Source: Crambe crambe | Taxonomy: Eukaryota; Porifera; Demospongiae; Poecilosclerida; Crambeidae | Direction of reading: 5' to 3' | NCBI GenBank assembly: GCA_963924555.1 | Contig: OZ004586.1 | Coordinates: 6,716,501 to 6,780,500 of the forward strand | DNA length: 64,000 nt | Shown: piece by piece, positions 30,890-63,361 of the stretch | Position numbering within the stretch: the stretch's first letter is position 1 | Layout of the letters: each line of letters opens with the position of its first letter | Notes under the pieces: generated by a model | Databases searched by the model: none | What the model saw: the letters and a program-made list of their open reading frames with translations, nothing else | What the model was told of the DNA's origin: nothing | Program-made: the position numbers and the translations under genes

Positions 30890-33602
30890 ATGGCTGAAGG
30901 TGAGTAAGAGTATAATGATAGCTAGCTAGGCACATAATAATCACTTTAAAAAAAATACTATTTTCTACAAGATCCTATCCCAAGAGATGTCTGTGATACT
31001 GTTTTCAATGAGCTACATGATGAACTCCAGAGATTCCTCAACTTTGAAAAAATCTACCCTTTTCTAAACACCTACCACCTTCTTGACTCACTGGATCAGT
31101 CCATCCTGACCAACCCTAATACCACAACCGAAAAGAAAGTGGATGTCGTAATAGATTGGCTTCCCAGATGTAACCACTCTGACTATCTCACTCCTTTCAT
31201 AAAATGTTTGAGAGAGAGCTCAGAAGAGGCTGGGGATGCACACGCTGTATTGGCTGATGAATTCGAGAGGTTGTCCAGAGCAGAACTTCAAAAAAATACT
31301 ACAGGTAACCTCCCATATGCTATAGCTAATTGCCATCCAATTTTATAACTATCTGCATGGTCACTTCCTCTGAGGTCATTCCAGACAATATACCTGTAGT
31401 TATAATTACCAAATTAGGCATTCATCAGTGCATTAAGGAAATGTTGAACACAAGCCAGTGCTAACCCTTAGCAGGGTGCTGTACACCAGTCCACAGATGC
31501 AGAGCTCACCTTGTAGTCTCACACAGCCTAAAGCCTTTCTAGGTAATGGTCGTTCCAGAATGAAGCCCTTTTTGACTCTATAATTCTCATTCTGGCCATT
31601 GGGGTCCCCTATTTTGAAGAAGTAGCTACCCAAAACTTTATGACATCAGTTCAATTAAAAATAAAGACACTATATATAAATGAAAGTCATGTAAATTGAC
31701 TAATACAGTCAATAATAATGGCATATCTCGACTGCATGAGCATCAATATTATGAAGGGAATGCAACATTCACTTGAATTTACGATCATAATCATGCATCT
31801 GACCTGAATGAAGTAAGCAACTTTAATGGCACAATTTTATTGCTTATTGATGTTGATTGATGGATGTGGTTTCTTTATTATTGTTGTTGTTGTTGTTGTT
31901 GTCGTTGTTGTTGTTGTTGTGCAGTTTTTGTCACGAGCAACACTTACAACACAGAGAGCTTTAGAGCTACTACAGAGATGATACCTGTTTCTGGACCCAA
32001 TTATGAATTTACAAATCCAAAGAAAGGTATGCTCACTGTCCTTCTATGCCATGTAAGCATTGCAGAACATGAGTACAGTGCATGGATAATGGTCAGTATA
32101 AGCAGGTCACCTCTCAACAGCCGCAGGGATCCAATTAAATCCCAAGAGGTTTATTAGTGTACATTTCAACCTGAGTTAGCAGGCCACCTCTTTATAACAG
32201 CCATTTCTTGCTGGCCCAAGGGTGACCACTATAACCAGGTTCCATGGACTATAGTAGAACTGGTGGATCCACACGGTTTACATTTGTAGGTTTAAAGGAG
32301 TATATGTGTTGTCAGAGGCTGCTCCTATAAACATGAATGAAACCAGTTATGTGTAGCTATAGCATTTCATACACTATTTTTATTTGGTATTGGGGATGAA
32401 ACTTATAATTAAACCACTCTGTATTGAGACCATGCACTTTACCACTACAACCAGCAAAGGTTCCAAATTCTCCCCCTTTTTGCCTGGTCAATGAAACTTT
32501 GGAAATGATAGAACCATTGTATCAACGATTAATTTTACACTGATCTTCCCATTATGAGCTATGTCATGATAATGTATATGCATGCTTTTTGATGTTCATA
32601 GCTTTTTGGAAGAACAGAACATTCTATAGTTGTATATGTGCAACCACTTCCCTGGTCATCATTTCGTTCATATGGGTGATTCTCACCATTGTGTTTGAGA
32701 CAGCTACGCCATCAAACTTAGTCGCACACAAAATGTTAATTTTTGGCTCAGAAACCATTCCCTTGGAAACAGATGTCCCCCATCAACAGTGGCTACAGTC
32801 AATTGATGTACATTTTGAAAAATCTGATTGCTCAGGACAAGTTATAGTCATTGGATCAAAATGTTCAAGTTTGCCGACAAGAGAGAGCTTCATTCCCTAT
32901 ATAGACAATCCTGAATTCATCTATGCATTGCGTGGTTCCGAATTCAACATCACTGTTCCTGACACGGAAGATATCCGAACAGACCCTCCTAACCTGTGGT
33001 TCACTCATACCCTGGAAGCTTACCAATCACTAAACGAGCAATTGTCTCCAGGAGGATTTCATGAGTTTAGTTGCAATGGACCACTCCCTCAGGGTTTTTC
33101 ATGTTTTCAGTCAGAACCATACATTGGCTCATCCCTGATCTTCAACACTACTGACCCAGGCTACTACAGCTTCATATTGACTAATTCACAAGATAATGAG
33201 GTAGTACCAGTAAATGGGATTGAATGGTCTTATCACAATATCACGTATGACTTTAATGTCATATTATATACTTCAAATTACTCCTTCATTCAACCACGAA
33301 TATTGGTACATGGAACAAAGACCTCAACTGTGAAGTTATCTCATTTTTTTGACTTCAATACACCTTCATGTGCTCTTCTTAACTTCAAATGTCGTACTGG
33401 CTCACAGGATAGGAGTTCATTCACGTATAACGTTATGATTTCAAACCTGATTCATCGTGCTGATATTGTTGTGTTAATTTTGCTTCTTTATATATTCATA
33501 TCTTTCCTTATAGTGGGACTGATGACTCTGTATTATTGTAAAGTGTGTAAGAAAATTTCAGTATGTTTTAGTGGCCATGGTTATCTCTCTATTAATAATT
33601 AG
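30890..33602 (+). CDS. CARD gene A: CARD-TM-ectodomain-TM protein, 481 aa
   Basis: Four exons: 30890-30899, 30972-31304, 31925-32026 and 32602-33602; every internal junction is phase 1 with GT-AG sites and the frame is open (1446 nt). Exon 2 encodes a CARD (about residues 5-105) with the death-fold helix pattern, including YHLLDSLDQSILTNPNTTTE, KKVDVVIDWLPRC and DYLTPFIKCLRESSEEAGDA. Exon 3 adds a 34-residue Ser/Thr-rich juxtamembrane segment. Exon 4 has TM1 (about 158-180), a ~254-residue ectodomain with at least four N-glycosylation sequons, paired-looking cysteines and motifs LWFTHTLEA, YALRGS, PGYYSFI and WSYHNITYDF, then TM2 (about 437-463) and a short tail. Death-fold domains recruit signalling partners in the cytosol, so N-in, C-in topology is expected. 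The ectodomain fold is not recognised. This is the best intact plus-strand member. Confidence 0.85.
31876..31921 (+). repeat. (TTG)n microsatellite at the acceptor of CARD A exon 3
   Basis: A (TTG)n run ends directly in the acceptor tgtgcag, forming its upstream tract. Confidence 0.9.
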
Positions 33603-34455
33603 TATTTTTTGTACCTATTACACAATGAGTGATGACGATAATAATATTAATAGCTAAGCCCCAAGGATATGCACTGTAATGTCAGGTAGCTAATTGCCAG
33701 CTAGCTATAGTGACAGACACAGATAGTGCTCTCATCATGCTCTCGGAAAATTCCATTGAGCTGGGGATTCCATATTCCCTGAGGGGATGCAAAATACCCT
33801 GAGTGTATTTGGCTCAGGGATGCCAAATACCCTAGGGTATTTTACTTGGGGGTGCCAAAAACCGAGGATGCCAGATTCCCTGTGACACCGGGACTTTACC
33901 AATGAATTATTAGTAGCTATATGGGAGGTGGGAGCTTGTTTTATCATGTCCGGGCAGTCACTAGCTTGATAGCTACAACTCTGTCTCAGGCATGTGCTTT
34001 CCTAATGCAGTTAATTCAAATTGAAAGAATACAATGGTAGAAAATGTAAAATAATGTAGTGTCCTTAAAGGCTAATGACTAGTTGTGTTTTTGCACTGGC
34101 CAATGTGTTGAAGTTTGATCATAAAATGAGGAGTCATCTTGTTCAGTGTTTCACTAATGAAAATTTTTTTACCCCTTCCTTATACTGATCATTACATTTA
34201 TATTTTAAGATGCCCCGAGTTATGTATGATACTATGTTCTGCTGTGACCCCTTCCAAGCGTATTTTGCAATAAAAACGTCTACTGAAATTACTACTGGAC
34301 CTGTCCTAAGTGTGTGAATTCTATATAGTCAGTGTTATTACTCACCACCTATTTTGGTTTTGTCAAACTAGCTATAACAGTTGATTTTAGCTTTACTGTT
34401 ATTATTGTTATTCTAATGATTAATAATTCATCATGTGATCATGATTGTTATTAGA
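33603..34455. other. Gene-free stretch
   Basis: 3' flank of CARD gene A. Around 33770-33890 the motifs ttccctgaggg, taccctgagtg and taccctagggtat recur, a degenerate short-period repeat. Nothing coding is seen. Confidence 0.5.
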
Positions 34456-34737
34456 TAAGGGAAAAAGCATTTCGTGAAATGAAAAAAGATATAGGGATGA
34501 CCACTGCTCAAAAAAGTAAGGAAACAAGAAGGATGGAATCTTTGTTCTGTATATCCAGCCAACAATCCCTACATATACGTCGGGTAGCTTCAGATTATAG
34601 TGTAGTAATGTACATATATGTAGGGATTGTTGGCTGGATATACAGAACAAAGATTCCATCCTTCTTGTTTCCTTACTTTTTTGAGCAGTGGTCATCCCTA
34701 CATCTTTTTTTCATTTCACGAAATGCTTTTTCCCTTA
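34456..34737. mobile_element. Large palindromic fold-back element
   Basis: Arms of roughly 120 bases are almost perfect reverse complements (taagggaaaaagcatttcgt ... and the mirrored end ...tttttccctta) around a ~40-base spacer. TA flanks both ends, suggesting a TA target site. Confidence 0.9.
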
Positions 34738-34807
34738 CTTGTTCCTGGTCTTTTTTTCCTCTCTTTTATGGTTTTAGCTATGTATAGAGTTCATTCTTCT
34801 ATGTGTA

Positions 34808-34870
34808 CAGGGGCGGATCTAGCACTTGAAATTGATAGTCTTCCACCTGTCACTTGCGCGCGCGGAGCCA
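34808..34870. mobile_element. MITE fragment truncating CARD copy F
   Basis: It starts caggggcggatctagcactt and matches the left end of the element at 131-472. It abuts the broken CARD exon at about 34870. Confidence 0.6.
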
Positions 34871-35073
34871 AGGTAGTCAGACTGCTTGTACTTGGGGAGC
34901 CAACCTACAACAATGTCCACTTTCATTTCAGTTATGATTTTAATATCAGTTAGGATGGACTGATCCAGTGAGTCAAGGAGAAGGTAGGAGTTGAGCAATG
35001 GGTAGATGCTGTGAAAGTTGAGGTATGTCCTGAGTTTTTCATGCTGCATCACAGACATCTCTTGGGATAGAAT
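34871..35073 (-). pseudogene. CARD copy F: truncated CARD exon
   Basis: The exon 5' end at 35073 has the family acceptor (aataatag|ATTCTATCCC) and encodes PRDVCDA, then an internal 14-nt deletion causes a frameshift. The CARD is readable again as YLNFHSIYPLLNSYLLLDSL and VDIVVGWLPKYKQSDYL, and stops at a MITE junction. It is closest to copy C. No first exon or ectodomain is present. It lies head-to-head with the eIF4E pseudogene, mirroring the arrangement of E with intact eIF4E. Confidence 0.8.
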
Positions 35074-35267
35074 CTATTATTATAATCTCATTAGCTAGCT
35101 AGCAGGCAATACTATCCACCGACAAGGATAGGGATACATCAGTCGACATCTCTCCAGCACGGCGTCATTCGACGCGCGCGCGATAAAGTGTTTATGGACT
35201 TGATGTCCTTTTCCAAGTCTGACAGTTTGTAAAGTCTGTTAATTTATGCTATATCATTTATATGCTT

Positions 35268-36864
<1,597 letters not shown>

Positions 36865-36894
36865 GTATGTATTATCATGTAACTACCACCAATG

Positions 36895-37115
36895 GTAAAC
36901 ACCATCCATGCCATGCCACGCCCCTCACTTATTGAGCTGAGTCCAATGTAGACCATCCATGCCACACCCCTCACTTGTTGGACAGTTCTCAGTGAACTGA
37001 GTCCAATGGTGGGTGTATCACCACCATCCATGCCACACCCCTAACATTGGTACTCATTGGACAGCTCTGAGTGAGCTGAGTCCAATGGTAAACCTATCAC
37101 CATCATCCATGCATG
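36895..37115. repeat. Minisatellite, ~2-3 units, shared with eIF4E intron 5
   Basis: Units contain caccatccatgcca, cccctcac, tcattggacagctctgagtg and gagtccaatggt. They are homologous to the longer array at 59640-60440, which follows the same exon in the intact gene. Confidence 0.9.
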
Positions 37116-37134
37116 ACTAGTCTCATGAACCAGA

Positions 37135-37416
37135 CCTTTCACCTTTGATCCCTGCATGGAGGGAAAGGGTCTGGTCAACACTCCACACAAGTTTTGCACC
37201 CGTGGGATATACAAAATTAAAAATTGATGGGCGGGTGCAATTCGTGTGTGAATAATAATAGTATAACCCTTGGTGTATAATCGACAAATTTTCTCTTAGT
37301 AAATAATGATGTATTCTGACATAACGCAATCTGCCAAGATCCTGGCACTGACACAAAACTTGTGTGGATTGTTTACCAGACCCTTTCCCTCCCCGCAGGG
37401 GTCAAAGGTAAAAGGC
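37135..37416. mobile_element. MITE with ~65-bp TIRs
   Basis: The left arm contains acctttgatccctgcatgg, gagggaaagggtctggt and ccacacaagttttg. The right arm mirrors these with few changes, ending in ggggtcaaaggtaaaaggc. There is no coding capacity. Confidence 0.85.
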
Positions 37417-37588
37417 AAGTATGCAAGCAAGCATAGCAAAATGTCAAAGGTAACGTAAAGCAAGTATGCAATGCACTGAGGGGTTACCGTTTGCCTGCCA
37501 AAAATATAGAAAGAATGGGTGTGGCTTGCATTGCGGAGTGGGTGTGGCTTGTGAAATTAAGTAGTGGTAAAGGGTCGACGTCGTCAAA

Positions 37589-40500
37589 ATGGCTGAAGGT
37601 GAGTAATCATGATACATAGCTAGCTAGGCACATAATTATCACTTTTAAAAATACAAGATCCTGTTCCAAGAGATGTCTGTGATACTGTTTTCAATGGGCT
37701 ACATGATGAACTTCAGAGATTTCTCAACTTCGAAAAAATCTACCCTTTTCTAAACACCTACCACCTTGAGTCACTAGATCAGTCCATCCTGACCAACCCT
37801 AATACCACAATTGAAAAGAAAATGGATATCGTAATAGATTGGCTTCCCAGATGTAACCACTCTGACTACCTCACTCCTTTCATAAAATGTTTGAGAGAGA
37901 GCTCAGAAGAGGCTGGGGATGCACACTCTGTATTGGCTGATGAATTCGAGAGGTTATCCAGAGCAAAACTTCAAAAAATACTACAGGTTTCCATATGCTA
38001 TAATTGGTCTAATAATTATGGATTTATTGACCATCAAGTGATTAATGCAGTAGCTAGCTATCAATGAGAAGAGGATATGATTTTTGGGGTATTGTGTTGT
38101 GTTGGAAGCATTTTTTTTTTTATTAGTGAAGCTAAGCATATTATGGTAGGCTAGAAAGTTTGGCTGCATACACTTATCATCACTTGTTATTATTGTGGTC
38201 TTATGCAGTTTTTCTCACGAGCAACACAGAGAGATTTGGAGCCACTACAGAGATGATACCAGTTTCTGAACCCAAGTATGAATTTACAAATCCAAAGAAA
38301 GGTATCAAATAGCTACTAATAGTAGCATTTCATGCACTAAGATAATTTTGGTATCGTGGATGGGGCAAACATGAAAAATGGACAAGAAACTTCCACTCTG
38401 TATTGAGACCATTATTAACCACTGCACTACCACTACCAAATAATGTTCTGAATTCTCCCCCTTAATATTAGTTATTTCACAACCATGAAGGCTGGCTGTA
38501 TGGCTAGAGCCAAAGGGCCAGAGCAATGTAAACATACAGCCTAAGCCATTGTTACTAGAATTACAACCATGTAGCTAGCAGTGCACCACAAATAACTGTA
38601 AAAATCCATGTGTCATAATAATCCATGCATTCTGTTTGAATGTTCATAGCTTTTTGGAGGAACAGCAGTTGTATATGTGCGACCACTTCCCTGCTTATCA
38701 TTTCGTTCATGTGGGTGATTCTCACCATTGTGTTCGAGACAGCTACTCCATCAAACTTAGTCGCACGTAAAATGTTGATTTATGACTCAGAAACCATTCC
38801 CTTGGAAACAGATGTCCCCCATCAACAGTGGCTACAGTCAATTGATGTACATTTTGAAAAATCTGATTGTTCAGGACAAGTTATAGTCGTTGGATCGAAG
38901 TGTTCAAGTTTGCCGACAAGAGAGAGCTTCATTCCCTATATAGACGATCCTGAATTCATCTATGCATTGCGTGGTTCCGAATTCAACATCACTGTTCCTG
39001 ATACAGAAGATATCAGAGCAGACCCTCCTAACTTGTAGTTCACACATACCCTGGAAGCTTACGAATCACTAAACGAGCAATTGTCTCCAAGAGTATTTCA
39101 TGAGTTTAGTTGCAATGGACCACTCCCTCAGGGTTTTTCATGTTTTCGGTCAGAACCATACATTGGCTCATCCCTGATCTTCAACACTACTGACCCAGGC
39201 TACTACACCTTTATATTGACTAATTCACAAGATAGTGAGGTAGTACCAGTAAATGGGATTGAATGCTCTTATCACAATATCACGTATGACTTTAATGCCA
39301 TATTATTAGGCATGGGGCTAATATGCTCTTTTTTTGGCCTATTATTCTATTCTGCAGTGCTCCTCCAGCAGGCCCATTATTCTTTTCATAGTAGCCTATT
39401 ATTCTCAACAAAAATGTCCTGAGAGAGTACATTATATATTATTTTGAACTGTGTGTAGCATTTAACAGTTTTCCCAAAAGGATGTAAAAAAAATTTGTTC
39501 AGAATGCAATACTAGCACTCAAAAGCACCCATGTGTATAGGCATAGATATACTAGACTACGTACACAGGATTGGAAACAGGTCACGTGCGCCCATAACGA
39601 CAATACTGACAATCCGTGTAGGCAGCTGTTCGTGCTAAATTGCCCCAAACAAACAGGGGAGGAGAAGTAGTGTGCCAAATTTCTGCTAAACTATAGCCAA
39701 TTGGTAAGTTCAAAGAATGCAAAGAGTGGGCTAGTATAGTGCTAAACAAGCATAGTTCTTAAAAAGGCTGGTTTCTCAAGTGTTAGAGGGTATAATTGTG
39801 AGTAACAATGGTAGTTCGACTTTGTAGACCTCTGGAGCTAGAGTATAGTCTCTTTTTTTCCCACTAATCTGTTAGGTAGTGATCATTTATATGTACATAT
39901 GTACTTTTTAAAGGTGCCTGTAAAAAAATCATGTTGATGTTACTGTTTCTTCAGATTACCCATGGCTGGCTGTCAAGAAAAGCTATAGTAAAGAAGGATA
40001 CTATAATGTAACAACTAATACTGTCACTTTACACATATTTCCTTTCATATTATAATAAAAAAATAAGTACTGATAGTGCACTGCTGAACATCCAATTCAT
40101 CGAGAGATTTGTTGTGATATACTTGTTTTGAGGGATCAAGATGAAGAGTAAAGCTGCCCCAGTGTATCCTTTCCTGCCCCTGATACAAGAAGGTATCTCA
40201 TCTCCTCATATAAGAACAACAACATAGTGAAATGGCTTCTTAAACCATCAATGGCAAATGGCATGCCATCTCCAGCCCTGCACAAAATTAAAACTACTTG
40301 AGTACATATGGTCAACTAGTATCTTTCATTTTACACCAAAAGTAAGGCAGCTAGACTTCTATTTTAGTAGTAGGAGTGCCACAAAACTTTTCAGTCACCT
40401 GTTTCCACGTTTTTCTTCCATAGCAACAGTAAATAGACTAAACTGACATGATAAACTACTACAGCTATAGGTCATTGAGCCTTTTCACTTATAATCATAA

Positions 40501-40915
40501 TTATTGCTGCGCTAAATACCTTGCCTTTCATCCTCTTTCTTATTTTGTGTAAGATTTCTCTGTTCGCCAGGTACCTACACGGATGGTCTATAAATTCTAC
40601 GCGCGCATGCCCTGTTTCCAATCCTGTGTACGTAGTCTAGTATATCTATGGTATAGGCAAGGGAGCGAGCTATAACAATAACTGAAGCCTAATATTCTGG
40701 TCTTTTAGCCTATTATGCTGCTATTCCAGTGAGGCCCTATTATTCCCATTATCACGTATAACGTCATCGTGCTGATATTGTTGTGTTAATTTTGCTTATT
40801 TATATATTCCTATCTTTCCTTATAGTGGGACTGATGACTCTGTATCATAATTATTGTAAAGTGTGTAAGAAAATTTCAGTACGTTTTAGTGGCCACGACT
40901 ATCTCTCAATTGGTA
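37589..40915 (+). pseudogene. CARD gene B: disrupted paralogue of A
   Basis: It matches A from ~100 bp upstream of the ATG onward. Exons: 37589-37598, 37658-37986, 38209-38301 and from 38650. The CARD exon has lost one base of a poly-A run before the donor, breaking phase, and a 3-nt deletion in HLLDSLD. Exon 4 has TGG to TAG at the LWFTHT position (about 39036). From about 39306 the ectodomain is replaced by ~1.45 kb of inserted repeat DNA; only the last part, with the TM2 region, resumes at about 40753. The missing ectodomain third was deleted. The promoter and splice sites remain, so transcripts are possible. Confidence 0.9.
39306..40752. mobile_element. Nested repeat insertion in CARD gene B
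   Basis: Outer sequence (39306-39541 and 40658-40752) carries direct ~60-base similarity at its two ends, around gcctattattct and gcctattatgct. The inner element 39542-40650 has ~40-bp perfect TIRs (CATAGATATACTAGACTACG ...) flanked by the 7-bp direct repeat gtatagg. No transposase is visible inside. The TSD and TIR form suggest a hAT-like non-autonomous element (inference). Confidence 0.85.
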
Positions 40916-40919
40916 TTTT

Positions 40920-41400: not shown

Positions 41401-41528
41401 TGCACGGCCCGCAGTTTTTTTCTTCAGGAAGCGTTTGCGCATATAAAACCATAAACGCCACGGTGAACCGCACTTGATTAGGCTGGCTTAAAACATTGAG
41501 CCTCTGTCTTCGCGATCGCTGCTGAGCT

Positions 41529-43042
<1,514 letters not shown>

Positions 43043-44610: not shown

Positions 44611-47373
44611 CTAATTGTTAATAGAGTGATAGCAACATACTGAAATTTTCTTACACACTTTACAATAATACAGAGTCATCAGTCCCACTATAAGGAAAGA
44701 TAGGAATATATAAATAAGCAAAATTAACACAACAATATCAGCACGATGAATCAAATTTGAAATCACAACATTATACGCATATGAACTAGGAGCCTATGAG
44801 CCAGTAGGACATTTGAAGTTAAGGAGAGCACATGAAGGTGTATTGAAGTCAAAAAAACGAGATAACTTCACAGTTGAGGTCTTTGTTCCATGTACAAATA
44901 TTCGTGGTTGAATGAAGGAGTAATTTGAAGCATATATAGCATCAAAATCATACGTGATATTGTGATAAGACCATTCAATCCCATTTCTGGGCAATACATC
45001 ACTATCTTGTGAATTAGTCCATATGAAGCTGTAGTAGCCTGGGTCAGTAGTGTTGAAGATCAGGGATGAGCCAATGTATGGTTTTGACTGAAAACATGAA
45101 AAACTCTGAGGGAGTGATCCATTGCAACTAAACTCATGAAATCCTCCTGGAGACAATTGCTCGTTTAGTGATTGATAAGCTTCCAGGGTATGAGTGAACC
45201 ACAGGTTAGGAGGGTCTGTTCTGATATCTTCTGTATCAGGAACAGTAATGTTGAATTCGGAACCACGCAATGCATAGATGAATTCAGGATTGTCTATATA
45301 GGGAATGAAGCTCTCTCTTGTTGGTAAACCTGAACATTTTGATCCAACGACTATAACTTGTCCCAAGCAATCAGATTCTTCAAAACGTACATCAATTGAC
45401 TGTAGCCACTGTTGATGGGGGACATCTGTTTCCAAGGGAATGGTTTCTGAGTCATAAATCAACATTTTACGTGCGACTAAGTTTGATGGAGTAGCTGTCT
45501 CGAACACAATGGTGAGAATTACCCATATGAACGAAATGATGAGCAGGGAAATGGTTGCACATATACAAGCGTAGAATTTTTTATTCCTCTGAATAGCTAC
45601 ATGTATCAAACAGCATGCATTATCATGACATAATCATGGATCCATGGATGTTCTATGGTTCTATGACCAAATTATATAATAGAGCTGTGACAGTCACAGG
45701 TAGAAATCAAAGTATTGATTGACAACTTTCTGTCCATATTAATAGCTACTAGTGGCCTAAGTCTTGAAATTTACTATAGAGATAGTTCTCTTGTCTTTTT
45801 CCTCATTCCCCATTCCCGATACCACATCTCCAATACCTATCCCCGTACCAAAATAGAGCTAGCATGATGTTGTAGATTTAATATTGGGGGATGAAAATTC
45901 CTGAATGAGTTTACGACAACAATGGGATACCCGGGGGTCTGAACCATCTGATAATAATCTTGGGGGTGGGGGGTCCCAATATCAATATGGGAGTGGGGCT
46001 TGGTAAATTTTCCCATTCTCACACAGCTAATTCTATTATTCTCAATGTGTGGAATCGCCTGGGGACAAGGCTATACGTATGTTGTTGCACTATACACTAC
46101 ACACATTTTGTACATGTCATTCCTTTTATTAAGTTATCAACTATTCTACAAAATGTCTACCTTATACTATTCTTCATCTATACTGGGATGACCTCATAGT
46201 ACTCGTTGTCTATTGTTATGATTATTATGGTAACACTATAACCACTATCTGTTTATTCCACAACCTGTCTTCCATAAAAGAATTATCTTATAATGATGCT
46301 ATAGTAAATTAACAATGGCCTGGATCAGGATGGTTGACTCTCTGTAACAGTTATTGAATTTCAACCACTGGATCATTATGATCACCTTCAATGGAAGATA
46401 GACTAAAAGATTTCAGCCTTTCAGACATTTTACTGGTGCTGTGCTCTAGCTACAGTATCCAGCTGGTTGAATAGGGATGTAGATTCAAAGGCTAAGCCTG
46501 TAAAAATGACTCATTGGGCTCATGCACTTCTAATCACTACTGTGTGGCTGCAGAGTCGATGCACAGACATTTTTTAAGCTTTTAGATATTTTTAATGGTG
46601 GAGAAATAACGTCTAAACATTGTTGAGTGAAGTTGGAGCATTCTAATGGCTGCTAGCTACAGATAGCTACATGTACGCCCCTGTCCATGGTTATCCCCCC
46701 TACCCTTCTATGCATATTTATTGCAACTATACTCTCACAACACACCATACGTAGTTTTGATAATGGAACAATGCAAGTGCACCTTTTATGGTAGCTTCAA
46801 CTTAGAATTGACCAGCTTTGAAATATAGTATAAGCTAGGGGAAACTACATTGAATTTGTGGACGGTCTGTGTTTTCCAGACCACAACTTATAGTCAGGCC
46901 ATAATGTTTATGGTATAAACATCATCCACAGCACTACAGAAATGTGTATTACTATACTGAGTACAAGAATGACATTGTAGTCAATGCAGCTAGGCTATAT
47001 GGACTTTAAAATACCAAACCTGGACATGGATCTGGATGTATCCTCCTTTTCTTTCGAAGTTCTTCTTGAATCAACCTTTCAAATTCATCTATCAATTCCA
47101 AGTGTGCATCTCCAGCCTGTTTAGAGCTTTCTTTGAGACATGCTATGAAAGGAGTGAGGTAGTCAGACTGCTTGCATTTGGGGACCCAACCTATAACGAT
47201 GTCCACTTTCCTTTCAGTTGTAGTTTTAGGGTCAGTTAGGATGGTCTGATCTAGTGAGTCAAGGAGACAGTAGGAGTTGAGCAATGGGTAGATGCTGTGA
47301 AAGTTGAGGTATATCCTGAGTTTATCATGAAGCTGATGGATGACTGCATCACAGACATCTCTTGGGATAGAAT
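44611..47373 (-). pseudogene. CARD gene C: near-intact copy with one nonsense codon
   Basis: CARD exon 47020-47373 and ectodomain exon 44611-45596, both phase-1 junctions. The CARD exon is open (YPLLNSYCLLDSLDQTILTD, YLTPFIACLKESSKQAGDAH) and ends in a basic KKRRIHPDPCP. The ectodomain is very close to A (LWFTHTLEAYQSLNEQLSPG). An in-frame TAG at 44794-44796 sits 25-30 residues before TM2; the frame is open again through TM2 to a stop at 44611. The A-type juxtamembrane exon is absent. I could not recognise a first exon: the place corresponding to E exon 1 lacks an ATG in frame. It could be a recent pseudogene or encode a one-pass product. Confidence 0.75.
45597..47019. other. Intron of CARD gene C
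   Basis: 1.4 kb, AT-rich. Contains short open frames without support. No homologue of the juxtamembrane exon of A was seen. Confidence 0.55.
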
Positions 47374-47544
47374 CTATTATTAAAAACAAAAGTTACTTAT
47401 CATTAGCAAGCTAAATCAGCAATACTTTTAATAATTTCCACCGACGCTGACAGGGATTCATAAACTGCCATTTCAATGCTGCGCTGTGCTAGCTAGCTAA
47501 GTTGCGACTCGTATATTCTACGCGTGCGCGGTATACTGTCACGA

Positions 47545-48500
47545 AATATTTGGTCCGGGGAAATATTTTGTCCGGGGCGGACAAAAAATTTGTCCGGTGC
47601 TGCCATAAATTGTCCTCTTGAGAATATAAAACTGTGCTATCTTTTCCCTGATTGACCTCTTTGCATGCATTAGCTATAATAGCTACTAGATCACTGCATG
47701 CAGTCTTCTGGGTAACACAGTCAGCTATCATAACAGTTTGTTCAACCAACAAGTCCAACCCTTCCATACCAACTCTGGTTTTTATCATCTGTGCTCTAGC
47801 TAATGTCTGAAGGGGACCAAATTATCATATTGTCCAGTGCAGTAGGACAAAATACGGCAGCCATATTTTGTCTATATAATTATAAAGTAGCCATGCATAT
47901 CAGCTTCCATACATGGTTCCTGTCTCAGTTCCAAGAATTCAGTGGAGTAGCTATAGCTATGTCTTTTATGAAGGGGATATAAGTTAAAATGTTTGTACAA
48001 TAAATTTCACTTATCAAGTTTGCACATTGCCATCGATAGAATAACTGAATCTCACATTAGCTATAATGCCTTGCATTTATTGCAGAAATAGCCAGCTGCA
48101 AAACTTAGTTACTTTTATATGTGCATGTGATTTAACTGATAACTAGCTAGCTGCTATTTGTAGCTAATATAGTCCAGATAAAAAATGTCTGAGCATTATA
48201 GTCTCCTGGACAGATCGAATGTAGCAGTTATATTTTGTCCGAGCAAAATATAACTGCTTAGCTACATGTAGCTATAATTGTCTGGATGAAATTGCAATAG
48301 GTCTGGACAAAAAATAAGGGGATAATTATTGGGGGACAAAATATGGCAAGAGGGGACCAAATATTGCAACCAGATTTGGTCCATGAGGACAAAATATGGC
48401 TGTCATAATTATTTTATCCGGCTGCCATATCTTGTCCTCATGGACCAAATCTAGCAGGACCAAATAATTATGGCATGACAAGCCTATTAACATTACGTAC
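47545..48500. repeat. Fold-back region of tggacaaaat-type motifs
   Basis: Motifs such as tttggtccgggg, ttttgtccgg, gccatatttTGTC and ggacaaaatatgg recur in both orientations. The clearest pair is gatttggtccatgaggacaa (about 48379) and its mirror ending at about 48455. It lies between CARD genes C and D. Confidence 0.6.
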
Positions 48501-49682
48501 AACCGATGGTGTGACAGCCTTGACTGTTTGACCATAGTTGGCATAGATATAGCTAACTATGATTTGACATGATGTAATGATTAGAGTGCCATCTCAAGGT
48601 ATAAATCGCTTGGAAAGACATAATTGATAGACTTTTTTCTTCAAGCCTTGCAATAAAAAAATCAGAAAAAACCAAAAAAGAAAAGCAAGAAAATAAAAAA
48701 ATGTTAGAATAATGATATCAGCATGATGCTCAAAGTTTGATAACACAATAGTGTAGACATGATTATGACTACTTTCAACACATGAAAAATTAAGAAGAAC
48801 ACAAGATTTATTGTCATTGAAATCAAAGAAACAGGATAGCTTCACTGTCAATTTTTAAATTCCTTTCACAAGCACACCTGACTGCTGCATCACTGCTGAG
48901 TTATTTGACACAATGGCATCAAAGTCATATGTGATGTTGTAATCTAAATTGTTCCCATACGAAAACTTGGTGTCTTGTGGATTTGTTTGTATGAAGCAGT
49001 ATATACCATCCTGGCTTAGTTACATTGAAGATCAGAAAGGATCCTTTAGCTATGTGGTCCTGAGGGAAAACAGGAATAATCTTGCGGAAGTGATCAGTCA
49101 CTGCATTTAAAGTCTGGAAAGTTTCCAGGGTTTTTCATTTGCCGGTATAACTGTTCCTTTGCTTCTATTGTGTGAGTGAACCACAAATTGGGACGCTTAG
49201 GCAGATTTGTTGGTAGCGTAATGTTTATCCATGAGCCTGGTAAGGCATAAATGTAACATGGTCGATCCACTTCTCCTATGAGACTTCTTTTGACAGGCAG
49301 ATCTGAGCAGTCAGTCCCATCAGTTACGATAGTCCTTCCCCTGCACTTCTCTTCATTGAAATGTATATCAAATGACAGTAATTAGTGCTTATTAATGTTT
49401 GACACCAGAGGGATCGCTTCACTGTCAAATATCTTCACTTCATAATCTGTTGTTAAATTAGCTGTAAGTGCTGTTGCTAAGACAACTGTGATGATCAACC
49501 ATAAAATCAGACATAATGCTATGAGCATCCAATCAGAAACCGATACTTGCAAAAAAAATGATCCTGTGCATTTATATATTTATTAAGTAAGGTAATTATC
49601 TAATTCTTTGCAGAGTGGAATCTCTAGAAGTGCTCTTATTTCCAGGTCAAAAACACAAAGCTAAAGCACCTCATCTTATTGT

Positions 49683-49820
49683 ACAGTGGAACCTCCAATA
49701 AAGGACACTCTGAAAGAGGACTCAACAAACAAAATAACCTCTAAAAGAGGACAACTTGTCTGCAGAGGACAAAAGGCTGGGTCCCAAGTGAGTCCATTAT
49801 TTAGAGGTTCAACTGTAGCT
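49683..49820. repeat. Dispersed 'cagtggaacctc' repeat, copy 1
   Basis: acagtggaacctccaataaa and aggacac/ggacaa blocks. Related sequence lies at 56478-56560 and, inverted, at 61115-61217. All three carry the phrase for extra or missing 'aggaca' units. Confidence 0.65.
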
Positions 49821-49953
49821 ACGTATTACGTACATGGGACACACATGCACATGCAGCTTATGAAACCATGGTTTACATGCATTGATATGTTGGCATTGAG
49901 TCAATAATTGTGGTCATTGTAGATATGGAGGAAGGGGGCTAAAAACAGAAATA

Positions 49954-50221
49954 AAAAGTAATAGCTATGATTGTTTGTGCCTAAAACCATCCCATTGCAG
50001 CTGTATTATCCTTATTCCCTTAATAGGAATGCCGGGAGTTTACTGGACTATAAGATAGCAGCCATCAGTTCCAAAATCATAATGGTGGGGGTTGACTGTG
50101 GTTATAATTATGATTTTGGAAACTGATGGCTGCTATCTTAGTCCAGGCATTCTTATTAATATAAGGATAATACAGCTGCATGGGATGGCTTTTGGCACAA
50201 ACAATCATAGCTATTACTTTT
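49954..50221. mobile_element. Palindromic fold-back element in intron 2 of CARD gene D neighbourhood
   Basis: Arms of more than 100 bases mirror each other from aaaagtaatagctatgattg to ...caatcatagctattactttt, with a ~15-base centre. It lies within the long intron between the D ectodomain and CARD exons. Confidence 0.9.
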
Positions 50222-51778
50222 GGTTGGGTTGGCAATATAAAACAACCATTATATCAGGATCAACTCTAATAATAATAATCTAGTTTAGCTATAGCTACTC
50301 CTTTCATCCAATGAGCCAATGTAATCAGTAACTATACATATGGTAATTACACCATGAATAATGGATTCATGACACTTCCTGGTATCCTGAATTAGCTAAC
50401 CATCCAAATTTCAGCATCAAGGCTCAGTTGCTTATTGAGTTACCAAAATGCAAGTGAGGTAGCTAGCTATATGGAGCTAGAATACTGGTATGACAGAATG
50501 AGATAGCTATATCTTATATAATTGTCTATAATCTATTTTGAACATGAACTACTATGATTATGGCAGGCTACATAATATTAGTAGCTAAAGCTATTAGGCA
50601 TTCCTTCATTTCTTAACCCCTAAGTCATGCAAGTTCAATTCAATTCTTAATGTAGAGAGGTTATAAAGTGCATGCATAGGAGCTGATCAAGACCAGACCT
50701 GTCCTCTTCCTTTGAAGTTCTTCCTGGATCAACCTTTCAAATTCATCTGCCAATTCTAAGTGTGCATCTCCAGACACGCTATGAAGGGAGTGAGGTAGTC
50801 AGACTGCTTGCATTTGGGGAGCCAACCTATAAACTATAGTCTATATCTTTTCAGTTGTAGTTTTAGAGTCAGTTAGGATGGTTTGATCCAGTGAACCAAG
50901 GAGATGGTAGGAGTTAAGGTATGGGTATAGATGCTGTGAAAGTTGAGGTACATCATGAAGGTGATGGATAACTGCATCACAGACATCTCTTGGGATAGGA
51001 TCTAGCATTAATTATACATAAGTATAGTCCAGCCATTATTTATTAAAATACCTTGTTCTTCAGCAAGATCTACAGACATTACCTCTCTCAACTCATAAGA
51101 TAGTAGCTAGCTACACACAAAAAAATTCATCATGCAATGAATGACCTTACATAAGTTATGACATCACTTTTAATAGCTCTGATTGGTCAGCATCATCACA
51201 GCTAAATGACCATTGACCAATAAACATTTTAGTGTCTATTATAGTGTATCAATGTTTGCTCCTTTTCATAATAGCTGAACAAGGTCTGTTGTTAGTTTAT
51301 TTATTTGTTTGTTGACTCATTCCCAAGTATAGCTAGCTAATCCTGAAAACAATTGTAGTTACTTTGTATTCCCTGTTAGTCCTTCTTTCAGAAATAAAAT
51401 GTCACTCGCACTCCACTTTAAGAATTTGCTTTTCCAAATAATGGCAAAGAACTAGAACTGTACAGCATAGTTTAATAATTTTCCTGCTCTAGTTAATCAA
51501 GACCCCTCCCACTTTATCGCTCCATAATCTACATAATTATGGTCAATATGGTATTAACTCTGTCCCTGAGTAGCTATAGCTAGCTGGCTAATCCTAATGT
51601 TATTTATTGAGCTCTAAAAACAATAGCTTGCTACATATAGCTATAATGTTTAAGTTCAATTTATTTCTTCACATGCATGGTGGATCATCTTTCAGTAATA
51701 GTCCTTCAGAAACAAAGTCAATTTTCACTTTCCTTTGAGAATAAAATATAATAATGATGATTAGCTATAATTATAGGA

Positions 51779-54542
51779 TTACTTTTGAAGATGGTCTTGA
51801 TTATCGTCACTGAGGTCAAAGTCAGGTATTGCTTTTATCAATCCTTCTTTCACTCCTTCTTCAAAATGAGCCATACATTCTAGTTTTTCACTAGTTGAAT
51901 ATCGTACTTGAATACACAGTGGGCCCGGGAACCAGATATCTTTGAATTCATACAATATTGTCCAATTGTATGAAAGTCCTACCTTGCCATGTTTTATTTT
52001 CTGCATAATATTATGTGATACGATATAATTTTAGAAAAGGGACCACTTCACGCAGGATTTAGCTATGCACATTTAAAATTAGATTATTTTTATCCACTTC
52101 TTTTTTATTGCCTCCACAGTATCTTCAGTCCTTTGTCTAACTTCCTGCCAAATTTCAGGAAGTGGGAAGGTTTTGAAGTAGGCAAGCGCTCGAGTTGAAG
52201 CACTTCTAGCCACGGTGGTTTAAGATTGAGCTTCCAGAGGAGTAGCTACCATTAGGGCAACTGGGACACTTTCCCCAGTAAAATTTCATGGAAAAATGCT
52301 GTTTAGTTAATCTCGCGCGCACAGCCCCCTATAAAATTAATAGTGGTCTGGTCTAATCTGTAGGGTAGATGTGGGTCAGCTAGGTATTGTTGCTCTTTTC
52401 TTGGAAATGGACTATCTTAGAATGCTGAAAATTGCTCCAGATATAAAATAGGTTATGTAGAACTAATAATGTGGAGAAAGTAATAAAAATATTGCATCTT
52501 GTAGATAGGAGTCGCTAAGATTTCTACAAAATAAAAATAATTACCTTAGATTACTTTAAAATTCACCATCTTGTAGCATCATTGCTTCCTTGTGCTTTTT
52601 AAAATTCAGATTAGTCACGATTATACCCATTTTTAAAAGTTATTATGTTTATGCATGAATAAGGCATGATTTTATTTGATCAGTATCAACTCTTGTAGAT
52701 TCTTATCAAGTGGTGAACCCTAATAGAGACTGATTCATAATACCCACATCTACCCTAGCTTTCTCGCTCTCAAGGCGTGGTTTATTATGATGTAGCGTCA
52801 TTCATCAATTGTCGTCCGCAATCAAATGTCGGCGAAATTTACGATAATGACACGGAAATTATAATAATTTACTGAGTACCGCGTGTTAGCCGGGAAGGAG
52901 TGTTAGTGTAGAATCTGTCGTTTGTTTCAGTTAGCTATCTACTTTCTAGCTGTTTACTAATGCCAGCAAGGTCAAGAAGGGCCGAGGCAGCTTCTAAATC
53001 GTGGGGGAAGAGGAAAAAGAAGCAGGTGTCTGCCAACAGGCCTAAGAGATTGAAGACATGGTCCGATGAGTCCATGGTATCAGCCATAAACGCCGTCAGG
53101 GAAGGAAGAATGATCGCTAGTGTGGCTGCCAGGTCCTATGGTGTTCCTCCTTTCTGCAGCCAGGGCCAGTGCCATATTTAACTGAAGCAGAAGCTGCCTC
53201 TGGCCCAGTATGTGGTAGCATTTTCTCTTAGAGCATGCAAATCTTTCACTCTGATTTTTGATTTGTCATGATTATTGTAGATTTATAGGTTCATTTACTT
53301 TACTTTTTGATCATTTATTTTATTTTTCAGTTTAGTATTTCCCTATTAATAATTGGAACAAGAATTGCAAGTTGCCGACAATATATTAACGCGGTTCTAT
53401 TAGCATAACGACAATAGGTAAGAGGTCGCCGACTTTAGATCGTCCAGTTCCGGTTATAAAAAGTGATGTAACTTGACTTCCAATTGGCCCTATGGAATGA
53501 AAAATGCAATTTTAAGAGAGTAATGAATACTCTATCGATTGGACTTTGAACCAAGGTTATTGATGTGCGCGTTCGTGAGATAATAAGCCTGGCACAAAAC
53601 CTCACCGACTATTGATGAATGACGCTATGACTATCATTAAAAAGTGCGAGCATAAATTTTTAATTTGACTATAATAATAAAGCAGCTATGGAAGAGATGT
53701 CTCCTCAGAGGAGAAGAAACGGAGTGGCAGCTCTACATTGCAAGCAGTAGCCAGCAGTAGTCCAAACACTTCTCTCTTAGAGAATACAGCTATGGCTGCA
53801 ACTTGATCCTCCATTTACTGTAGTGATACTAGAGGAGACACTATTAATACAGTAGACTTCATGTCCATGGATCCAGGGGCGGATCCAGGAATATTTAGAA
53901 GGGGGGGTCAGTTGTATAGTGTTAGGCATATCCACACGGATAAGCGGGTACTCAATGCAGATGGCATTCCACATCTGCCACTGTGCTTGACCGTGTCCAA
54001 CGAGTTAATTAATAAAATCATAAATTGTTATGCTAAAATCGTATACCTTTTGAAATACTTGGTCAGTGGTTTGATGGCTGCTAGCTGCTCTCTTCATTGC
54101 TACAAACTCAGAAAGTGCATGTGCGCATGCTCAGTTTACCCAATGGTCGTCATCGAAAGAAATTGTAATCAAATCGCGCGCTTTCCAACTGTGCATGAGC
54201 TACTGCTACTAGGCAGAGGTTGGAGGGGGGGGGGGTCCTGACCCCCCTAGACCCCCCTCTAAATCCGCCCCTGGCCGATCTATCAAAGACACTAGAAAGT
54301 AATATATGATTTTCCATAGCCAGTAGGGAGTGACACAAAGACATCATGACAAGTTACAGAGCCCCCATACGTCCCTTTCTCTACTAACTTACATCATCGA
54401 TACAGTCTTTGAAGCATTCCAATTTGGATTTCAAATGCTTCTTCAAAGATAACGATAGGATAATATCAAGTCTGGCATATAGAGGAATATCAAAAGGAAC
54501 TGGATCAACTTTAAATTTCTTTACACCCGTACCCTGATCCAT
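51779..54542 (-). CDS. S4: orphan small-protein family gene, two exons, 123 aa
   Basis: Exon 1 54393-54542 starts ATG GAT CAG, has 50 codons, and ends at a strong donor (GAT|gtaagt, phase 0). Exon 2 51779-52000 follows acceptor ttatgcag in phase 0 and runs 73 codons to TAA. Total length is 123 residues, equal to S3. Exon 1 has DIILSLSLKKHLKSKLECFK, comparable with S3 IKIIASLELKEQGLKPGTLD. Exon 2 has LYEFKDIWFPGPLCIQVRYS, comparable with S2/S3 (YEWKDFGNKAYIEITFSG). The terminal intron of S1-S3 is absent. The 2.4-kb intron holds a MITE, a transposase fragment and a hAT-like element. Membership is supported by length, phase and motif order, not by high identity. Function unknown. Confidence 0.5.
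52075..52230 (-). CDS. Unassigned coding-like segment in the S4 intron
   Basis: The minus strand reads STRALAYFKTFPLPEIWQEV followed by a charged helix and a stop near 52073. It looks coding but no phase-compatible donor links it to the S4 second exon. It may be a further S-family exon or a fragment. Confidence 0.3.
52361..52757. mobile_element. MITE with TIR TAGGGTAGATGTGGGT
   Basis: The left end tagggtagatgtgggt is mirrored by acccacatctaccct a at the right end. It is ~397 bp with no coding capacity. TA flanks suggest a Tc1/mariner-type target site. Confidence 0.75.
52960..53181 (+). pseudogene. Pogo-like transposase N-terminal fragment
   Basis: The frame begins MPARSRRAEAASK, has a basic linker and a psq/CENP-B-type HTH segment (KRLKTWSDESMVSAINAVRE, then VAARSYGVPP). 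Coding is lost after about 53150. The DDE core is missing. It resembles the HTH of the relic at 3.9 kb but is a different subfamily copy. Confidence 0.65.
53874..54273. mobile_element. hAT-like MITE, CAGGGGCGGATCC ends
   Basis: caggggcggatccagg at the left and aaatccgcccctg at the right form the TIRs; a gggggggtc / gacccccc pair lies just inside. No clear target duplication could be made out. It sits in the S4 intron. Confidence 0.8.
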
Positions 54543-54630
54543 AATGTATCACCGCTCGCTGGGCATGGGGCGGAATCGAATCCGCGCCAAAATTTAAACG
54601 CCTTACTGCTGCGCATGCGTCAGTAAAGTA

Positions 54631-57600
54631 TTATATTTTTAATAAGCGATACAAACCAAACATTAAAAAACAACAAAAGAAAACTAAAAGTAAAAAAATA
54701 AAAAGAGTTACGGCAATGATATCAGCACGATGCTTAAAGTTAGAAAATACAAGTGTTTTGTCATGATGATACTCGTACTCACACAAGAAATTAAGAAGAG
54801 CACAAGTTTTTCTTTCAGTGAAATTAAAGAAATGAGATAGCTTTAATGTTGATTTTTCCATTCCTTTCACAGTCACACCTGACTGCTGCATCATCTTTGC
54901 TGAGTAATTTGAAACAATGACATCAAAGTCATACGTGATGTTGTAGTAGGACCAATCAACATACCCACTTGATAACTTAGTGTCTTGCTGATTTGATTGT
55001 ATGAAACAGTACCATCCTGGCTTAGTTACATTAAAAATTAGAAAGGATCCATTATATGGTCCTGAAGGAAAGCAGGAATAATCTTGCGGAAGTGATTGGT
55101 GACCACATTTAACGTCTGGAATATTTCCATAAGAGTTTTGTGATGGACATCTTACGCTTCCTAATTGACAGTACAATTGTTCCATTGCTTCTAGGGTGTG
55201 AGTGAACCACAAATTCCGATTATGAGGGAAATCATTTCGTAGTGTAATCTTTATCCATGAGCCGGGCAAGGCATAGATACGACACAGATTATCATTTTCT
55301 CCTACGTGACTTGTTTTTTTAGGCATATCTGAACAGTCGATCCCATCAACCACAACAGCTTTTCCTTTGCAACCATTTTCTTTGAAATGTATGTCTACCG
55401 ACAGTAACCACTGCTTATCGATGTTTGATAGCAGAGGAATTGTTGCATTGTAGAATATCTTCTCTTCTGTGGCAGTACCAGTTGGAAGCACTCTTGCAAA
55501 AACAATGGTACTGATCAACCACACAATGACAGTCAAGAACAGTATTAGAAAGGAGCATCCGATCAGAAAACGACGTTTGGCATTGAGAATTAATCCTGTG
55601 CAAACATATAAAAGTAGTTTTCTAGATTGTACAAGTTATTTCCCTAGCATTGTATGAATTAGCCTCGTCCCCAGGCTCTCGTGCACATGGAAGGGGGGAG
55701 GGGAAGAAAGAGAGCCTGGTACACACTGTTCATAAATTTCACGTGCGACTTCTGCTGCCCAGCGCGTTATCTCGTTATATAACACACGATGATACATACT
55801 TCAATTGAAAATGGAGGGGAGAAACTACCAGCACAGCACAGCTCTGGAAATCACCTAATTGGTTATCTACTGGTGTTCCACCACAAAAGGGATTAAGGAT
55901 TTGATAACACAGGCTCATCCCAAAGCCAGTACTACGCTGCTTCCTTCGTAAATGGCTCTGATAGACAGACGCTGCTCATCCTTCAAGGAAAGATTGCTAA
56001 AAACCTCATGCACCTTCCAAATCCGTACTGGCCGGCTTCTTCAAAACTAGCACTGCTACGAACACTAGACACTGACATTTGAATAATGACATCATTTTAT
56101 ATTACGCATTTGTACATAGAATGAACCAAAGAATTATGGAAGAATACAAATTCAAGATTTCTGTGAAAAACCTAAACATTCACAGTCAGTGTGTACCAGG
56201 CTCTCTTTCCTCCCCTCCCCCTTCCATGCACACGTGAGAGCCTGGGGATGAGAACCTGTATAAATGCCTGGACATAGGGTTGTGGCCAGCAACTAGTGCA
56301 CCGTACTTATCCTTATTGTCCTTATTCTCATTGCCACTGATTTCTTTGACTGAATTGTATGTGAAAGTTATGCATATTATGAAATATACAAAAAAAATTT
56401 TTTTTACTTTTGGTGTTGCAGCTTACATGTGATTAATTGACAAATCAACATTGAAAATTTACAGTATTCACCCATATTACAGTGGAGGTTCGAATAAAGC
56501 ACACTCCCAAAGATAAAAGGACACTCCCAAAGAGGATAACCAATGGAGGACACATGCATGACTCAAATTCTTATTCATTGGAGGGATTTTCCCAGGGGAA
56601 GCATTATTTCTGCATTTCACAAATTCCCCTGGGGAATCACCTCTGCCCTAACCACTGTAGTAGTAATAATTATTTGGATGTACATCAAAGCACCATGAAA
56701 GGTACACTAAAGTCCATTCATGGAAATATTATGGACAGCTGCTGTAACACCAATGCTCTCAGAGTCAGTTGCTATCATCATGAAGGACCAATTTTGGATA
56801 CTTCAGAGTAGTAAGCATTTTTGGCTTCGCACACATCCCCCTCCCCCTCACTAGCCATGCAAACAGTAAGCTTCCCCCCTAGATGAAACTCACTGTTAAT
56901 GTCTCACTGGATTGGACTGGAATACTGGAGTGTAAAATTACAGAGAGTGATAATACACATTTGAAAATTGCGTTTGTAGAGAGATATTATCTTACACGTG
57001 AAGGGGTTAAAAGGTGTAAACAGTACCCTCATACCATTATTATTTCCTAGTCCATACCAGTCTTCATTGGTTGTCACAACTATAGAAGTCTATACCCAGC
57101 CATCTTGCAACATAAAGAATGGACTCCCCAAGGGAAAGTAACGAAATTTTTAAAACGTGTGTAATCCTCTTTGTGTGTGGCATCGGCACCCAAACTTTAA
57201 TACATGCAGCCAATGTTGTTACAGAGATTGAGAACCAACTGACTCCAATTCACAAAGCACACATCATTTTCAGTGTAATTATACGATTCAGTAGTCCAGT
57301 CCAACAGTCCAATCCAGTGGATAGGGACACCCCAGTAGTTTTGCAGAACAATTGTCATGCATCAGGCAGGAATAGGTGGTGGCCTTGAAGTATTTGTGGC
57401 TGGGGAATAATAAAATTCATAGCAGTTTCTGAGTCTGTTTATCAAAGCACAATAATTAATGGCCAAATTTCATGCAGGGCTCACTATCATTGTCCAGACA
57501 TGATTATCTAATAGTTGAATAACTATTGGTCAGACAAAGGCAGAAAATGACCACACAAATTGATCGTCCTGTGACCAACTAACACCCAGCATTATAAAAT

Positions 57601-58080
57601 TGAGTGTTAAAACCAGACACCTGGACATTTCCTCCTTTTCCTTTTCTTTTGAAGTTCTTCTTGAATCAACCTCTCAAATTCATCTGCCAATTCCAAATGT
57701 GCATCTCCAGCCTGTTGAGAGCTTTCTCTGAGACACGCTACGAAGGGAGTGAGGTAGTCAGACTGCTTGCATTTGGGGAGCCAACCTACAACAATGTCCA
57801 CTTTCTTTTCAGACGTAGTTTTAGGGTCAGTTAGAATGGACTGATCCAATGAGCCATGAAGGAGCTGGTAGTTGTTAAGGAACGGGTAGATGCTATGAAA
57901 ATTGAGGTACATTCTGAGTTCATCATGAAGCTGATGGAATACTGCATCACAGACATCTCGTGTAATAGCTATTTTAATATAAAAAGGAGTTAGGATAATA
58001 ATAGCTAGAAGCCAAGTTATCATCTACAAGCACTAATTTTTAATACCTTGACTTTCACTTTCAGGAATATTCACTGACAT
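54631..58080 (-). CDS. CARD gene E: CARD-TM-ectodomain-TM protein, 448 aa
   Basis: Three exons on the minus strand: 58047-58080 (MSVNIPESESQ), 57621-57968 and 54631-55595. Both junctions are phase 1 with GT-AG sites and the total of 1347 nt is an open frame. The CARD covers about residues 13-105 (YPFLNNYQLLHGSLDQSILT, KKVDIVVGWLPKCKQSDYLT, ACLRESSQQAGDAHLELADE), followed by a basic RKRRK stretch. TM1 is about 138-162 and TM2 about 418-444. The ectodomain keeps the family motifs (YALPGSW, LWFTHTLEA, PGWYCFIQ, WSYYNITYDF, KLSHFFNF) and has six or more N-glycosylation sequons. It lacks the A-type juxtamembrane exon. It is only moderately similar to A-C in the ectodomain, so it is an older branch. 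A cytosolic signalling CARD and an external sensor domain are inferred. Divergent to eIF4E. Confidence 0.85.
55664..56252. mobile_element. MITE with ~65-bp TIRs in intron 2 of CARD gene E
   Basis: CTCGTCCCCAGGCTCTCGTG at the left and its mirror (CACGTGAGAGCCTGGGGATG) at the right, followed internally by GA-rich and cctggtacacactg blocks. 589 bp, non-coding. Confidence 0.9.
56478..56560. repeat. Dispersed 'cagtggaacctc' repeat, copy 2
   Basis: ttacagtggaggttcgaata followed by two acactcccaaaga units; related to the copies at 49683 and 61115. Confidence 0.5.
56561..57620. other. Remainder of intron 2 of CARD gene E
   Basis: About 1 kb with no supported exon. No counterpart of the A juxtamembrane exon is recognisable here. 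Confidence 0.5.
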
Positions 58081-63320: not shown

Positions 63321-63361
63321 ATTTAGAATAACATTATAGGCTACATTGACTGAGAAGAATT

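What the first reader, a model, noticed from the sequence alone, without database searches (positions are those of the whole stretch)
30890..58080. A clustered family with CARD - TM - large ectodomain - TM architecture
Six copies (A, F, B, C, D, E) of one gene type lie within 27 kb. Two assemble exactly by splicing (A 481 aa, E 448 aa). Seen: CARD-like helices with DSLDQ(S/T)ILT, TTxEKKVD and LPxCxxSDYLTPF, two hydrophobic helices, and a sequon- and cysteine-bearing ectodomain with conserved FTHTLEA, YALxGS, WSYxNITYDF and HRADI. Known: CARDs act in the cytosol by homotypic recruitment (for example in MAVS, NLRs and caspase adaptors). I know of no described receptor with an N-terminal CARD followed by a two-pass membrane anchor around a ~250-residue external domain. 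It could be a direct outside-to-CARD immune or self-recognition receptor.
Basis: partly seen in the sequence, partly recalled or inferred. Interest (0 to 1): 0.88.

Follow-up and report, generated by a model that had tools for sequence, protein, structure and literature searches.

The report
Sponge CARD-bearing two-pass membrane receptor family
A sponge genome carries a small gene cluster whose proteins join a CARD (a death-signalling domain that normally works inside cells) directly to an external-looking domain held between two membrane helices, so they may be a simple outside-to-inside immune or cell-death receptor; what they sense and what they do is untested.

The parts
30890..30899 (+). 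A exon 1 (MAE...), phase-1 donor
   Evidence: the same start context is found in F
30972..31304 (+). A exon 2: CARD, symmetric 1-1 exon of 333 nt
31925..32026 (+). A exon 3: 34-residue hinge exon, symmetric 1-1; in the window found only in A and F
32602..33602 (+). A exon 4: TM1, ectodomain, TM2 and Cys-rich tail in one exon
34870..35043 (-). lone partial CARD exon, closest to B's CARD (81% aa over 58 codons)
37589..37598 (+). F exon 1
37658..37986 (+). F exon 2: CARD, no stop inside, 93% identical to A, but 329 nt long (one base short near its end), so its phase does not fit the next exon
38209..38301 (+). F exon 3: hinge
38650..40918 (+). F TM-ectodomain-TM exon, broken: TAG at 39036-39038 and an insertion of about 1.45 kb after about 39305
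47020..47373 (-). B CARD exon, open, E-like (79% aa to E, 66% to A)
44611..45596 (-). B TM-ectodomain-TM exon, A-like (88% aa to A, 47% to E), one in-frame TAG at 44796-44794
50699..51001 (-). C CARD exon with two in-frame stops
48597..49563 (-). C TM-ectodomain-TM exon, several stops and a frame change, E-like; outer limits approximate
58047..58080 (-). E exon 1 (an in-frame ATG also lies at 58110)
57621..57968 (-). E exon 2: CARD, symmetric 1-1 exon of 348 nt
54631..55595 (-). E exon 3: TM1, ectodomain, TM2

Best explanation
A demosponge family of surface receptors. The N-terminal CARD lies in the cytosol. TM1 carries the chain out to a disulphide-bonded, N-glycosylated, mostly beta ectodomain of about 230-260 residues, and TM2 brings it back to a short cytosolic tail. 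Ligand binding or clustering of the ectodomain would bring CARDs together at the membrane. They would then seed a CARD assembly with a cytosolic partner (a CARD-caspase or a CARD9/BCL10-type adaptor) and trigger cell death or a defence response without a separate receptor-adaptor step. Shown: the exons, the reading frames, the CARD identity, two hydrophobic helices, and the recurrence of the architecture in P0003 (joined in one frame) and in G (exon layout). Inferred: topology, disulphides and glycans, plasma-membrane location, ligand-driven clustering, the downstream partner, and any immune role.
Against: No expression, localisation or ligand data. None of the A, E and B CARD exons is reported as Pfam CARD. 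The single-sequence PDB search also lists the unrelated yeast Kar9 at almost the same E-value (0.0033), though Kar9 falls to 0.35 with the four-exon profile while CARD9 stays at 0.0036. Foldseek E-values for the model are 0.1 or worse. P0003's source is not stated to be cDNA. The ectodomain model is poor (mean pLDDT 45.6). TM2 flanks do not follow the positive-inside rule clearly, and A also has sequons in its supposedly cytosolic part. Three of five pairs in the window are broken, so this is not a large maintained repertoire. No MALT1 match was found, but the control rang nowhere, so that says nothing.
Confidence: 0.5

Rival explanations
1. A two-pass ion channel or channel subunit (same topology as PAC/TMEM206, P2X or ASIC: both ends in the cytosol, a beta ectodomain of roughly 230-400 residues; recalled) that has gained a CARD for assembly or signalling.
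Confidence: 0.15
2. A MAVS-like signalling platform or a decoy on an internal membrane: the ectodomain faces the lumen of the ER or endosomes and the CARD recruits or sequesters cytosolic CARD proteins.
For: MAVS shows that a membrane-fixed CARD can be a platform (recalled; MAVS CARD-TM papers are in the listing). Nothing found here tells surface from ER or endosome.
Against: An ectodomain whose four cysteines are invariant across A, E, P0003 and G is more than an anchor needs. This rival differs from the main reading chiefly in location.
Confidence: 0.2
3. A polymorphic self/non-self (allorecognition) receptor locus.
For: Clustered paralogs, faster divergence of the ectodomain (A-E 46% aa against 68% in the CARD), broken copies, and exon exchange in B.
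Against: Two A/E-type ectodomain records from a second source differ at only 3 of 333 and 6 of 297 compared positions (species not named there). Only two unbroken copies in the window.
Confidence: 0.08
4. CARD exons and TM-ectodomain exons belong to separate genes and the join is a reader's artefact.
For: No RNA evidence from this genome was available; the introns before the ectodomain exon in E and G are 2-3 kb.
Against: Same strand and order in five of five pairs in the window and in G; phase-1 borders in A and E and available in G; P0003 encodes the whole in one frame.
Confidence: 0.04

Closest known systems
MAVS (and CARD19/BinCARD-2), recalled
   Same: A CARD fixed to a membrane; CARD in the cytosol
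   Different: One C-terminal tail anchor on mitochondria, no ectodomain; here two helices enclose a large cysteine- and sequon-bearing domain
Sponge gene with Ig domains and a CARD, Dysidea avara TR154561_c0_g1 (PMC6208332, passages)
   Same: A sponge protein joining a CARD to a domain type usual outside cells; in that paper's list of genes responding to microbial patterns, with positive fold change
   Different: Ig domains are named there; the ectodomain here matches no Pfam family except below-cut-off chance hits. Whether that gene has a membrane helix was not seen
Putative membrane-bound sponge NLRs (PMC12909245, passages); CARD exon next to an exon with a hydrophobic start and NB-ARC on C9 of this genome
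   Same: N-terminal death-fold domain in a sponge protein with membrane helices; the CARD exon of this genome's example is the nearest relative of the exon-2 CARD outside the cluster
   Different: NACHT or NB-ARC as the sensor core; no NACHT or NB-ARC match in the family here
Death receptors (TNFR superfamily, p75, UNC5), recalled
   Same: Ectodomain wired directly to a cytosolic death-fold domain
   Different: Single-pass type I, C-terminal death domain, known ectodomain modules; here an N-terminal CARD and a two-pass hairpin
PAC/TMEM206, P2X, ASIC/ENaC and CD36 (two-pass hairpins; topology recalled)
   Same: Two helices around one ectodomain, both ends in the cytosol
   Different: No sequence match found (Pfam; PAC); none of them is known to me to carry a CARD

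Membership tests
CARD (death-fold superfamily) | Sequence homology to known CARDs | tested here: met
   CARD9 is the best PDB match, E 0.0025 over residues 7-80, with Kar9 at 0.0033 as the only unrelated chain below 0.3; with the profile CARD9 0.0036, IglF 0.049, Kar9 0.35. An exon with a Pfam CARD in the same genome, E 2.5e-7, hhalign 97%
CARD (death-fold superfamily) | Six-helix bundle of the death fold with a kinked helix 1 | tested here: met
CARD (death-fold superfamily) | Recognition by the Pfam CARD profile (a detection rule, not a definition) | tested here: not met
   No PF00619 match reported for the A, E or B CARD exons or P0003, asked up to E 10
CARD (death-fold superfamily) | Homotypic CARD-CARD recruitment | not testable with these tools
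   Needs biochemistry
NLR | NACHT or NB-ARC domain | tested here: not met
   None reported in the A and E exons or P0003
MAVS-type adaptor | CARD plus a single C-terminal tail anchor | tested here: not met
   Two hydrophobic stretches 258-264 residues apart
PAC/TMEM206 channel | Two TM helices around a beta ectodomain | tested here: inconclusive
PAC/TMEM206 channel | Sequence homology (PF15122) | tested here: not met
   No Pfam match reported; the genome's own TMEM206 gives hhalign 0.2% and -1.0 bits
P2X / ASIC-ENaC / CD36 | Sequence homology to the Pfam family | tested here: not met
   No such family reported in the A or E TM-ectodomain exons, asked up to E 10; weak matches can be lost to HMMER's filters
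Immune receptor | Binds a microbial or danger ligand, or is induced by it | not testable with these tools
   No expression or binding data

The most novel reading that the evidence does not exclude
A direct outside-to-CARD receptor in a sponge: an ectodomain of new fold whose ligand-driven clustering seeds a CARD filament at the plasma membrane, with exon exchange in the cluster pairing different ectodomains with different CARDs. It would be a surface receptor and a CARD platform in one polypeptide.
Probability: 0.35. Interest if true: 0.82.

Novelty: new variant of a known kind. Interest (0 to 1): 0.62.

Why it matters
As far as I know, CARD signalling is understood almost entirely from cytosolic sensors and mitochondrial MAVS. 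A surface protein with its own CARD in an early-branching animal would show another way to couple extracellular recognition to CARD assembly, and may bear on how sponges sense microbes. It is directly testable: two intact short genes, one obvious signalling domain, one obvious sensing domain. The CARD being better conserved than the ectodomain, and the natural CARD/ectodomain chimera (B), fit a modular receptor.

Tried and rejected
More relatives: three protein searches of about 5.8 billion sequences gave only P0001-P0003. The alignment search returned P0003 alone and missed P0001 and P0002, so these searches are not exhaustive. Within the genome, the ectodomain of E finds only the cluster (7 of 7 matches at E<=0.01 in the window); that of A finds 7 of 9 in the window at E<=10. 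The better of the other two (C20, E 0.08) was read and by eye looks unrelated; the other (C18, E 2.09) was not read. G's ectodomain finds only itself.

Other CARD loci: twelve loci (L002-L008, L024, L028, L031, L033, L045; about 1.5 kb on each side of the match; L006 and L033 are the same place) were looked at for a second TM-ectodomain-TM exon. The first look read the wrong strand for four of them (L003, L028, L031, L045); it was repeated on the right strand. None showed a long exon with two hydrophobic ends; L031 has one 127-residue ORF with two hydrophobic stretches. An exon more than 1.5 kb away would be missed. Of the other CARD and CARD-like matches, only those in L053 (C9), L049-L052 (C10) and L054 (C12) were read over 10 kb.

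MALT1: no match, but the control rang nowhere, so nothing is concluded. Rfam: no match in the window at gathering scores. NCBIfam: nothing above its cut-offs.

Full report
What is there. tblastn with both proteins maps the copies in the window: pairs of a CARD exon and a TM-ectodomain-TM exon for A, F, B, C and E, plus a lone CARD fragment at 35043-34870. F, B and C carry in-frame stops; F's ectodomain exon also has an insertion of about 1.45 kb and its CARD exon is one base short near its end (329 nt against 333 in A, of which three are a lost codon). A and E have no such damage. In A and E all internal introns are phase 1, and the CARD exon is a symmetric 1-1 module (333 and 348 nt); so is A's 34-residue hinge exon, which in the window only A and F have. 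E may start ten codons further upstream.

The rest is a two-pass hairpin. A, E and P0003 each have two hydrophobic stretches 258-264 residues apart, the CARD rather than a signal peptide at the N-terminus (by eye, no predictor was run), a basic flank before TM1, and 4, 6 and 5 sequons between the helices; A also has four sequons before TM1, and the flanks of TM2 give no clear sign. Across A, E, P0003 and G four cysteines and an R-x-D-I motif at the TM2 border are invariant. The ectodomain matches no Pfam, NCBIfam or PDB family above noise. The model of E's ectodomain exon is strand-rich but poor (mean pLDDT 45.6), so no fold can be named.

The pairing is real. P0003, found by searching with E, is a 458-residue protein from a 1,513-base contig that runs CARD - linker - TM - ectodomain - TM in one frame. 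It is 37% identical to both A and E over the alignment; its CARD is 59-61% identical to the four CARD exons without stops. Its last residues (EIGRAHV) look like read-through into a common sequencing adapter (recalled). Together with its size this suggests a transcript, though the collection does not say so. Beyond the window's right end lies G: a CARD-like exon about 9 kb away (29% identical to E's CARD, E 0.0017; hhalign 94%) followed by a 337-residue TM-ectodomain-TM exon about 12 kb away. Phase-1 splice borders are available among several candidate sites. G's ectodomain aligns with the family in hhalign (94.7%, E 6e-8) and scores 31.6 bits on a profile of A, E and P0003, above all 934 scored shuffles of 1,000 made (best 8.7).

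How it evolves. Between the intact A and E the CARD is 68% identical (dN 0.20, dS 0.96) and the ectodomain 46% (dN 0.49, dS 2.3, saturated); dN/dS is about 0.2 in both. B pairs an E-like CARD exon (79% aa to E, dS 0.34; 66% to A, dS 0.60) with an A-like ectodomain exon (88% aa to A, dS 0.14; 47% to E, dS 2.5). In 60-base windows B is nearer to E in 5 of 6 comparable CARD-exon windows (the first is 0.84 to A, 0.82 to E) and nearer to A in 18 of 18 ectodomain windows. So exons have been exchanged inside the cluster. Two proteins from a second source (P0001, P0002) match E at 291 of 297 positions and A at 330 of 333 compared positions.

Where it lives. The genome is 143 Mb in 119 contigs. A silicatein-type active-site pattern (CGASYAF, recalled) occurs six times in a tandem group on C15, with none for the reversed pattern. 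The locus read encodes SVDWRTKGAVTSVKDQ and CGASYAFSAMAALEG, with a papain-family Pfam match. Silicateins are known to me only from siliceous sponges, so I take the host to be a demosponge. The genome has 22 CARD and 46 caspase-domain matches (exons and fragments, not genes), so candidate partners exist.

What is known. In the paper listings seen (some searches listed only part of their matches, and titles and abstract starts were what I saw) nothing described an N-terminal CARD with a two-pass ectodomain; the library lacks most subscription journals. The nearest reports are a D. avara gene with Ig domains and a CARD that responds to microbial patterns (PMC6208332, passages) and putative membrane-bound sponge NLRs (PMC12909245, passages). 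In placozoans two TIR-CARD proteins and a SEFIR transmembrane protein are described (PMC6321704, passages). I also looked at passages of PMC11797021 and PMC11508797; they did not mention this architecture. I therefore call this a new variant of a known kind: a death-fold membrane receptor with a new arrangement and an unassigned ectodomain.

Noticed in passing
L048:1918-2928 (+) and L047:8519-8986 (+), 9-13 kb beyond the window: Paralog G: a very diverged TM-ectodomain-TM exon with a CARD-like exon upstream; extends the family outside the window.
   Followed up: yes
window 47373-44611 (-): B is a natural chimera: E-like CARD exon with A-like ectodomain exon.
   Followed up: yes
L053 (G000:C9:1425000-1434999): Two copies of a CARD exon followed by an exon that opens with a hydrophobic helix and continues into NB-ARC (over Pfam's cut-off in the one copy scanned; TPR below its cut-off) with further hydrophobic helices: a possible membrane-anchored NB-ARC protein with an N-terminal CARD.
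   Followed up: partly
L049-L052 (G000:C10:7186000-7225999): A tandem array of genes with weakly CARD-like domains (E 7.5e-4 and worse), other helical domains and long repeat-bearing exons; the two exons scanned gave no Pfam family over its cut-off (one weak hit, E 0.034).
   Followed up: partly
window 20651-24586 (+): LTR-retrotransposon-like ORFs; reverse transcriptase and RNase H confirmed by Pfam, zinc-knuckle and integrase-like ORFs by eye only.
   Followed up: partly
window 34455-34740: Long inverted repeat beside gene A, seen while reading the sequence; looks like a foldback element.
   Followed up: no
window 39306-40764: Insertion of about 1.45 kb that splits F's ectodomain exon.
   Followed up: no
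window 63350-63796 and L047:57-1337, 4742-6751: TRIM-type genes (RING and B-box, NHL, and RING/B-box/NHL respectively) lie to the right of the cluster, before paralog G.
   Followed up: partly
G000:C15:872855-884857: Six silicatein-type active-site motifs in a tandem, alternating-strand group; used to name the host as a siliceous sponge.
   Followed up: partly
L070:1399-2508 (-) (G000:C18:6504350-6505174): A TMEM206/PAC proton-activated chloride channel gene whose matched core (profile positions 15-288 of 296) lies in one open exon, in a sponge.
   Followed up: partly
window 3207-3524 (-): Fragment of a DDE_1 transposase.
   Followed up: no
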